Origin: a virus
DNA length: 34,957 nt
Virus record (IMG/VR): IMGVR_UViG_3300025872_002500
Coordinates: 1-34,957 of that record
Strand: one strand, 5' to 3'
Shown here: positions 960-1,885 of the stretch, piece by piece
Layout of the letters: the number at the start of each line of letters is the position of its first letter
Numbering within the stretch: the stretch's first letter is position 1
Position numbers and translations under genes: made by a program
Notes under the pieces: model-generated
Databases searched by the model: none
What the model was told of the DNA's origin: nothing
The model's input: the letters and a program-made list of their open reading frames with translations, nothing else

Positions 960-1885
960 GGTTCTCTTGTACTTCACGGTTCATTCGCAGGTCATGGGTT
1001 TCTTGGGTTCATTGATTCACTCACAATAAACGGCACACTCGTGCCATACGGTTCAATCTAACGGAGTGGGGTACTCAACATTGATGCTTCATTTGTGAGT
1101 AACGGTTCTCTTCGTGACCTTGATTCGCTCCGGTCTTCGTGGTTCTCTGGCGAAATACGACTCATTCTAGGTGCTCGGTGCTCTCGTGAGGTACGATTCA
1201 CTTCGGCAAGTTGGTTCTCTCACGTATTTTGGTTCGTTTGCTAAAGACGGTGCTCTCTCGCTTGTTGACTCAATCAGACGTCTGGTTCTCTTGCACGCCT
1301 TGGTTCAATCGGAATCCTTGGTTCACTCTGTATCGATGTTTCGTTCGCAACAATCGGGGTTCTCATGGCATTTGACTCACTCGTTCGTATCTGAAACTCT
1401 CAAATGTTTCGGTTCACTGACTATGAATGGTTCTCTTACCTCTGTCGGTTCACTTCCCGTATCGGTTCTCTCACATTCGTCGGTTCGTTCCCTTCGGACG
1501 GTTGTCTTTGAGAAAGTGACTCATTCGTTCTGGCTGGTGCTCTCACCTGATTTGATTCGTTCCTACAGGACGGTGCTCTTTCGGGTAATGACTCACTAGA
1601 TGGCTCGGTACTCTAGGGGAGCCGGTTCATTCGTGCCACGTGGTACTCTTCGGCATCTTGATTCATTTAAGGGGTGTGGTGCTCTTATGCATCTTGATTC
1701 ACTCCAACCGAATGGGTCTCTCTTGGTTTACGGTTCATTTCACCGGAGCGGTACTCTCTTGAATCTTGATTCACTTGCCTTGAATGGGGTTCTTGAACAT
1801 CACGGTTCATTTAGCGTAGGCGGTACTCTCTCACATCGGGATTCACTTTGCAGTGCTGGTTCTCTTTACTTCTTTGGTTTGAGAA
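960..1885 (+). repeat. Array of 26 degenerate 36-bp units built from alternating 8-bp motifs
   Basis: Two 8-bp motifs alternate every 18 bp. Motif A is GGTDCTCT, starting at 960, 996, 1032, 1070, 1104, 1141, 1177, 1213, 1249, 1284, 1320 and onward to 1858. Motif B is GRTTCAYT or GRTTCGYT, starting at 978, 1014, 1050, 1086, 1122, 1159, 1195, 1231 and onward to 1840. There are about 26 A and 25 B copies with a mean A-to-A spacing of 35.9 bp. The 10-bp spacers between motifs are nearly all different. Read as codons, the units give G(S/T/A)L-xxx-(G/D)S(L/F)-xxx, a 6-residue beta-solenoid-like pattern, but the frame is broken by several indels and at least five stops (for example TAA at 1059, TAG at 1168 and TGA at 1508 and 1548). 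The array is therefore either a DNA-level element or a decayed repeat gene. It occupies a stretch with no credible ORF. Confidence 0.85.

What the first reader, a model, noticed from the sequence alone, without database searches (positions are those of the whole stretch)
960..1885. 36-bp array of alternating 8-bp motifs with randomised 10-bp spacers
Seen in sequence: about 26 copies of GGTDCTCT alternate with about 25 copies of GRTTCRYT every 18 bp over 926 bp, with spacings drifting by only 1-2 bp and largely compensating. The 10-bp spacers look random, yet synonymous-type positions in the motifs (the T of GGT, the T of TCT, the A of TCA) stay fixed. If protein sequence alone were selected, those third positions should have randomised along with the spacers. 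This favours a DNA- or RNA-level role such as a protein-binding array, partition or packaging site, or an origin. The competing reading is a broken beta-solenoid gene with G(S/T)L-xxx-(G/D)S(L/F) repeats.
Basis: partly seen in the sequence, partly recalled or inferred. Interest (0 to 1): 0.85.

Follow-up and report, generated by a model that had tools for sequence, protein, structure and literature searches.

The report
TIGR guide-RNA array with TasA protein
The regular 36-base pattern is a string of 26 two-part guide-RNA genes (a TIGR array) next to the gene of its partner protein (TasA) in a bacteriophage: a member of the RNA-guided DNA-targeting family TIGR-Tas described in 2025, not a broken protein gene and not a protein-binding DNA site.

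Summary
The array is real (942-1883): 26 copies of motif A (GGTNCTCT) and 25 full plus 2 half copies of motif B (GRTTCRYT) alternate every 18 bp. It is a TIGR array. The adjacent 'IS110-like' gene (2057-2908, minus) encodes a Tas protein (NCBIfam TIGR_Tas_endo, E 5.5e-57; best PDB sequence matches are Tas proteins). It lacks the N-terminal nuclease region, so it is TasA-type. Searching IMG/VR for the array DNA pattern alone returned 48 stretches; 34 carry a tas gene. Wherever both are visible, the array lies on the tas strand (45/45 loci). Two base pairs that join the half-edges of one tigRNA covary between neighbouring B motifs (window 23/26 and 26/26 Watson-Crick; 41 other arrays 471/524 and 500/524; 0 of 2000 within-array shuffles reach this). 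Joint turnover of the two spacers flanking motif A marks A as loop and B as edge repeat. Stop codons occur in every frame, so it is not coding. No target was found in the phage genomes or about 0.8 Mb of related sequence. The most likely mechanism is RNA-guided, non-cutting DNA binding by a TasA dimer; target and role stay unknown, as for TasA in the literature. New member of a known kind.

The parts
942..1883 (-). TIGR array of 26 tigRNA units (36-nt period), read in the direction of tas; the half-edge at 1876-1883 is first transcribed, the half-edge at 942-949 last
   Evidence: Periodicity; half-edge covariation 23/26 and 26/26 pairs including both terminal half-edges; same strand as tas in 45/45 loci
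960..1865 (-). 26 loop repeats (motif A, GGTNCTCT on +; RAGAGNACCR on -), every ~36 bp from 960 to 1858
   Evidence: The two spacers flanking motif A turn over together between relatives L010 and L011 (r = 0.69, p = 1e-4), those flanking motif B do not (r = -0.23)
978..1847 (-). 25 full edge repeats (motif B, GRTTCRYT on +; RARYGAAYCR on -), plus truncated edges at 942-949 (AGAGCACT) and 1876-1883 (GGTTTGAG)
   Evidence: Position 6 of one edge pairs with position 1 of the next, and 5 with 2
2057..2908 (-). tasA: Tas protein, Nop domain without nuclease domain (283 aa)
   Evidence: NCBIfam NF052498 E 5.5e-57; Pfam PF02371 weak; PDB 9mty E 8.9e-18 and TasH 21kl E 9.6e-10; AlphaFold model, top Foldseek matches are TasH structures
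1866..2060 (-). Small ORF (64 aa) between tasA and the array, start overlapping the tas stop; conserved in L010/L011; function unknown
   Evidence: Translations; no family match
2947..2975 (-). Sigma-70-like promoter TTGACA-17-TACAAT (11 of 12) upstream of tasA; could drive tasA, small ORF and array as one transcript
   Evidence: Consensus scan only

Best explanation
The finding is a TIGR array of 26 tigRNAs with a TasA-type Tas protein. Most likely mechanism: a transcript running from tasA through the array (minus strand) is bound by TasA at the box C/D-like edge and loop repeats and processed by a host RNase to 36-nt tigRNAs (half-edge, spacer A, loop, spacer B, half-edge). A TasA dimer holds one tigRNA; the two 8-nt spacers pair with opposite strands of adjacent target DNA. 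Having no nuclease domain, TasA would bind and bend the target rather than cut it, probably blocking transcription or replication of a rival element or a host gene. Shown here: locus anatomy, family membership, which motif is edge and which is loop, the two half-edge base pairs, strand. Inferred from the published family: processing, DNA targeting. Unknown: target and role.
For: NCBIfam TIGR_Tas_endo E 5.5e-57, above cut-off in 12/12 records searched (window and relatives). Closest solved sequences: 9mty (331 aa, the length of TaTasR in PMC12045711) and TasH; closest folds TasH-tigRNA complexes. Scanning IMG/VR for the array DNA pattern alone gave 48 stretches, 34 with a tas gene, and 45/45 loci have the array on the tas strand, usually within 200 bp 3' of tas. 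Covariation of (6,1') and (5,2') half-edge pairs: window 23/26 and 26/26; 41 other arrays 471/524 and 500/524 against 375 and 399 for shuffles inside each array, 0 of 2000 reaching. This matches the two edge-repeat pairs of the TasR structure (PMC12045711). Non-Watson-Crick cases favour G.U on the tas strand (42 against 19). Joint turnover of the spacers around motif A. The published definition (alternating 8-12-nt repeats, ~9-nt spacers, 36-nt units, truncated edge repeats at both ends) is met.
Against: No rho-independent terminator is evident at the array's 3' end, unlike typical TIGR arrays. No expression or processing data. No target found. The sense strand rests on co-direction with tas and a modest wobble bias. 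Several units carry degenerate loops.
Confidence: 0.94

Rival explanations
1. A decayed or frame-shifted gene for a beta-solenoid/hexapeptide-repeat protein (G-S/T-L-xxx-G/D-S-L/F).
For: In one plus frame the motifs read GSL/DSF, and short stretches are open; one relative (L067) has an ORF across its array.
Against: Spacers contain stops in every frame at near-expected frequency in the window and in 42 arrays; spacing shifts of 1-2 bp break frames; the motif pairs covary as RNA base pairs between neighbouring edges; a tas gene sits beside the array in 45 loci.
Confidence: 0.01
2. An array of double-stranded DNA sites for a protein (partition, packaging, origin or regulator binding).
For: Regular spacing and short conserved motifs; fixed position beside a nucleic-acid-binding protein gene.
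Against: Compensatory changes link half-motifs of neighbouring edges, about 30 bp apart across a loop repeat, which a dsDNA-binding site does not predict; the array lies on the tas strand in every case; the protein belongs to an RNA-guided family.
Confidence: 0.02
3. An IS110-type mobile element with a bridge RNA-like non-coding region.
For: Weak Pfam Transposase_20 and NCBIfam transpos_IS110 matches; PHROG family named transposase.
Against: No DEDD catalytic N-terminal domain was matched and the IS110 score is 21.8 bits against a cut-off of 140; the TIGR-Tas model wins by over 50 orders of magnitude; bridge RNAs are single two-loop RNAs, not 26-unit arrays (PMC12045711).
Confidence: 0.01
4. 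A TIGR-TasA locus that is no longer used as a guide store (relic array).
For: Some loops and edges are degenerate (e.g. GGCACACT, GAAACTCT, GGGGTTCT) and no target was found.
Against: tasA is intact and, between L010 and L011, 48 of 50 nucleotide differences fall at third codon positions; half-edge pairs are intact in 23/26 and 26/26 units.
Confidence: 0.08

Closest known systems
TIGR-Tas, TasA type with dual-repeat array (Faure et al. 2025, PMC12045711; e.g. FpTIGR)
   Same: Solo Nop-domain Tas protein, array of alternating edge and loop repeats, 36-nt units, truncated edges at both ends, array beside tas, found in phages.
   Different: 26 units where 5-15 is usual; about 10-nt repeats with 8-nt spacers; a 64-aa ORF between tasA and the array; no evident terminator. 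The deposited FpTIGR repeats were not compared.
TIGR-TasH of Salicola phage CGphi29 (SpTIGR)
   Same: Phage-borne; 16 nt of variable sequence per tigRNA; TasH is the closest fold in PDB; the CGphi29 protein has 29.7% identity over 60% of the query.
   Different: TasH carries an HNH nuclease; the window protein does not align with that part and no HNH domain was found.
TIGR-TasR (TaTasR; PDB 9mty by length and match)
   Same: Nop domain; two base pairs joining half-edges of one tigRNA; repeat ends in box C CCA (here CCR/YCR on the tas strand).
   Different: TasR has an N-terminal RuvC; the alignment starts at its residue 123.
IS110/IS621 RNA-guided recombinases
   Same: Shared RNA-binding Nop-like domain (weak Pfam and fold matches).
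   Different: No DEDD domain, no transposon, guide array instead of one bridge RNA.

Membership tests
TIGR-Tas | Adjacent gene for a Nop-domain Tas protein | tested here: met
   NF052498 E 5.5e-57; 12/12 records over cut-off; fold match to TasH
TIGR-Tas | Array of two distinct alternating repeats (8-12 nt) with 8-12-nt variable spacers | tested here: met
TIGR-Tas | 36-nt unit with covarying pairs between the half-edges of one tigRNA | tested here: met
TIGR-Tas | Array begins and ends with truncated edge repeats | tested here: met
   Half-edges at 942-949 and 1876-1883 keep the expected pairing halves
TIGR-Tas | Rho-independent terminator after the array | tested here: not met
   None between 901 and 942 on the minus strand; described as typical, not as defining
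TIGR-Tas | Transcription and processing into 36-nt tigRNAs bound by Tas | not testable with these tools
   Needs RNA pull-down and small-RNA sequencing
TIGR-Tas | Tandem-spacer DNA targeting (spacers A and B pair with opposite strands) | tested here: inconclusive
   No target in own genome or relatives above shuffled control; one guide of a related Halomonas prophage had no match in 90 genomes
TasA subtype | No HNH or RuvC domain | tested here: met
   Match to 9mty starts at its residue 123; no nuclease family found
IS110 transposon | DEDD transposase domain | tested here: not met
   Only the C-terminal Transposase_20 stretch is matched weakly; transpos_IS110 21.8 bits against cut-off 140

The most novel reading that the evidence does not exclude
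The phage keeps and renews a library of 26 guides aimed outside its own genome (host genes or rival elements) and uses TasA as a programmable, non-cutting blocker. Guides are exchanged as whole dual-spacer units while others persist across phages with 20-25% synonymous divergence, which would imply an unknown unit-acquisition process and stable natural targets.
Probability: 0.3. Interest if true: 0.8.

Novelty: new member of a known kind. Interest (0 to 1): 0.45.

Why it matters
TIGR-Tas was described in 2025; the role of nuclease-free TasA, natural targets and spacer origin are open (PMC12045711). This locus belongs to a group with many related arrays in public viral contigs and in a few cellular genomes, including isolates (Halomonas sp. 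NO4, Acidobacteriaceae KBS 96). Comparing related arrays shows, without any experiment, where tigRNA boundaries lie and that both spacers of a unit turn over together, which gives a way to look for targets and for unit-acquisition events.

Tried and rejected
Self-targeting: no exact dual-spacer match with a 0-2 nt gap in the window, L010 or L011 genomes; one 15/16 match with a 3-nt gap inside tasA is not kept in L010 and fits chance. Targeting of related phages: 3 exact hits for 1006 units in 0.79 Mb, same as shuffled controls. Halomonas prophage guides: no hit for one in its own genome or for another in 90 genomes of the genus; the remaining guides were not run. Three-base periodicity of spacer substitutions, which would suggest coding targets, appeared in pairwise counts but disappeared when unit families were counted once. 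Purifying selection on spacers: retained units differ by 4-9% where fourfold sites of tas differ by 20-25%, but degenerate bases flanking the spacers are as conserved in four of five pairs, so recent unit exchange is not excluded. Rfam: no match. Isolated phages: only Salicola CGphi29 and Microcystis Mvi-JY20 carry distant homologues.

Full report
OBSERVATION. The array is there. On the plus strand, 26 copies of motif A (GGTNCTCT consensus) alternate with 25 full copies of motif B (GRTTCRYT); 43 of 51 steps are exactly 18 bp and the rest 16-20. The composite pattern A-10-B-10-A with up to 2 mismatches occurs 16 times against 0.00 in dinucleotide shuffles. Spacer cores are close to random, but the base before and after each motif is nearly always C or T, so each repeat is about 10 nt and each spacer 8 nt. 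Two further half-copies of B at 942 and 1876 complete the array.

IDENTITY. The neighbouring gene (2057-2908, minus), read by the first stage as IS110-like, matches NCBIfam NF052498 TIGR_Tas_endo with E 5.5e-57, while the IS110 model scores 21.8 bits against a cut-off of 140. Its only PDB sequence matches are 9mty and TasH; the top folds for its AlphaFold model (mean pLDDT 70, built from only 7 sequences) are TasH-tigRNA complexes. The match to 9mty begins at that chain's residue 123 and no nuclease domain is found, so it is a TasA-type protein. The paper that defined the family (PMC12045711) describes alternating 8-12-nt edge and loop repeats, about 9-nt spacers, 36-nt tigRNAs and truncated edges at both array ends: the anatomy seen here.

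ARRAY AND tas TRAVEL TOGETHER. A scan of IMG/VR with the array DNA pattern alone, no protein, returned 48 stretches. 34 of them contain a tas gene within the stored stretch (weakest E 5.5e-29); the others are mostly short or end near the array. All 11 loci found by the protein have the array. Wherever both can be seen (45 loci, some of them overlapping pieces of one contig) the array lies on the tas strand, mostly just 3' of the gene and sometimes on both sides. Relatives with arrays of the same kind also occur in cellular genomes, e.g. a Halomonas sp. NO4 locus where SSB-, ERF- and YqaJ-like ORFs (my reading of the translations, no family search run on them) lie beside the array and TasA.

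EDGE, LOOP AND STRUCTURE. Between close relatives L010 and L011, whole spacer pairs have been exchanged. The identity of the two spacers flanking motif A is correlated (r = 0.69, p = 1e-4), that of spacers flanking motif B is not (r = -0.23). So motif A is the loop repeat inside a tigRNA and motif B the edge repeat between tigRNAs. Independently, position 6 of each edge pairs with position 1 of the next edge, and position 5 with position 2: in the window 23/26 and 26/26 are Watson-Crick, with T-A, C-G and A-T types at the first pair and A-T and G-C at the second. In 41 other arrays 471/524 and 500/524 pair, against 375 and 399 when edges are shuffled inside each array; none of 2000 shuffles reaches the observed value. 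Controls with mismatched positions (6,2) and (5,1) show nothing. This is the two-pair contact between half-edges that the TasR structure shows. The imperfect pairs are more often G.U on the tas strand (42) than on the other (19), which with the 45/45 co-direction makes the minus strand the likely sense. There the repeats read RAGAGNACCR and RARYGAAYCR, ending in a CCA-like box C.

NOT CODING. Stops occur inside spacers in all six frames, in the window and across 42 arrays, at roughly the expected rate, and the spacing shifts break any frame.

HOW IT WORKS (partly inferred). A TTGACA-17-TACAAT promoter-like site (11/12) lies just upstream of tasA; a transcript from it would pass through tasA, a conserved 64-aa ORF and the array. 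By the published mechanism, a Tas dimer binds each 36-nt tigRNA and its two spacers pair with opposite strands of adjacent DNA. Without a nuclease, TasA is expected to bind and bend, not cut; this step is inference.

TARGETS AND TURNOVER. No self-target and no target in related phages above shuffled control was found; two single-guide tests with a related Halomonas prophage were negative. In some pairs of related phages roughly 55-80% of aligned units are retained and the rest replaced as whole units, while in other pairs nothing or almost nothing aligns; the window shares about three units with L010/L011. Retained spacers differ by 4-9% where tas fourfold sites differ by 20-25%, but neighbouring degenerate bases are mostly as conserved, so selection on guides is suggested, not shown.

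VERDICT. A well-supported new TIGR-TasA locus in a phage contig; ordinary as a kind, useful because the family is young and its targets are unknown.

Noticed in passing
L039, 3229-7154: The longest array seen: 217 in-register motifs (roughly 80 or more tigRNAs, since the chain also runs through the gene) on both sides of tas, far above the 5-15 units usual in the literature.
   Followed up: partly
L050, L051, L035, L036, L042, L053: A group of related phage contigs sharing many identical or near-identical dual-spacer units; good material for tracing unit gain, loss and exchange.
   Followed up: partly
L016 versus L017: Tas proteins 99% identical, yet almost no unit aligns in order between the arrays (only a few homologous units out of order): rapid array turnover.
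   Followed up: partly
L086 (Halomonas sp. NO4) 5690-6804: Prophage-like TIGR-TasA in a sequenced isolate, between SSB- and dUTPase-like ORFs, near ERF- and YqaJ-like ORFs; half-edge pairing holds by eye, including A-T pairs.
   Followed up: partly
window 1866-2060 (-): Conserved 64-73 aa ORF overlapping the tas stop and running into the first half-edge of the array; no family match.
   Followed up: partly
window 30652-33931 (-): Three adjacent ORFs built from about 120-bp tandem repeats (about 40-aa units), next to a collagen-like ORF at 34329-34955; probably tail fibre or surface proteins.
   Followed up: no
window 4649-6496 (-): 615-aa ORF with a weak, sub-threshold match to PI3/PI4 kinase (PF00454).
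   Followed up: no
window 13854-14672, 23767-24576, 25087-26811, 29742-30662: TauD and PhyH dioxygenases and several glycosyltransferases: likely auxiliary or surface-modifying genes of the phage.
   Followed up: no
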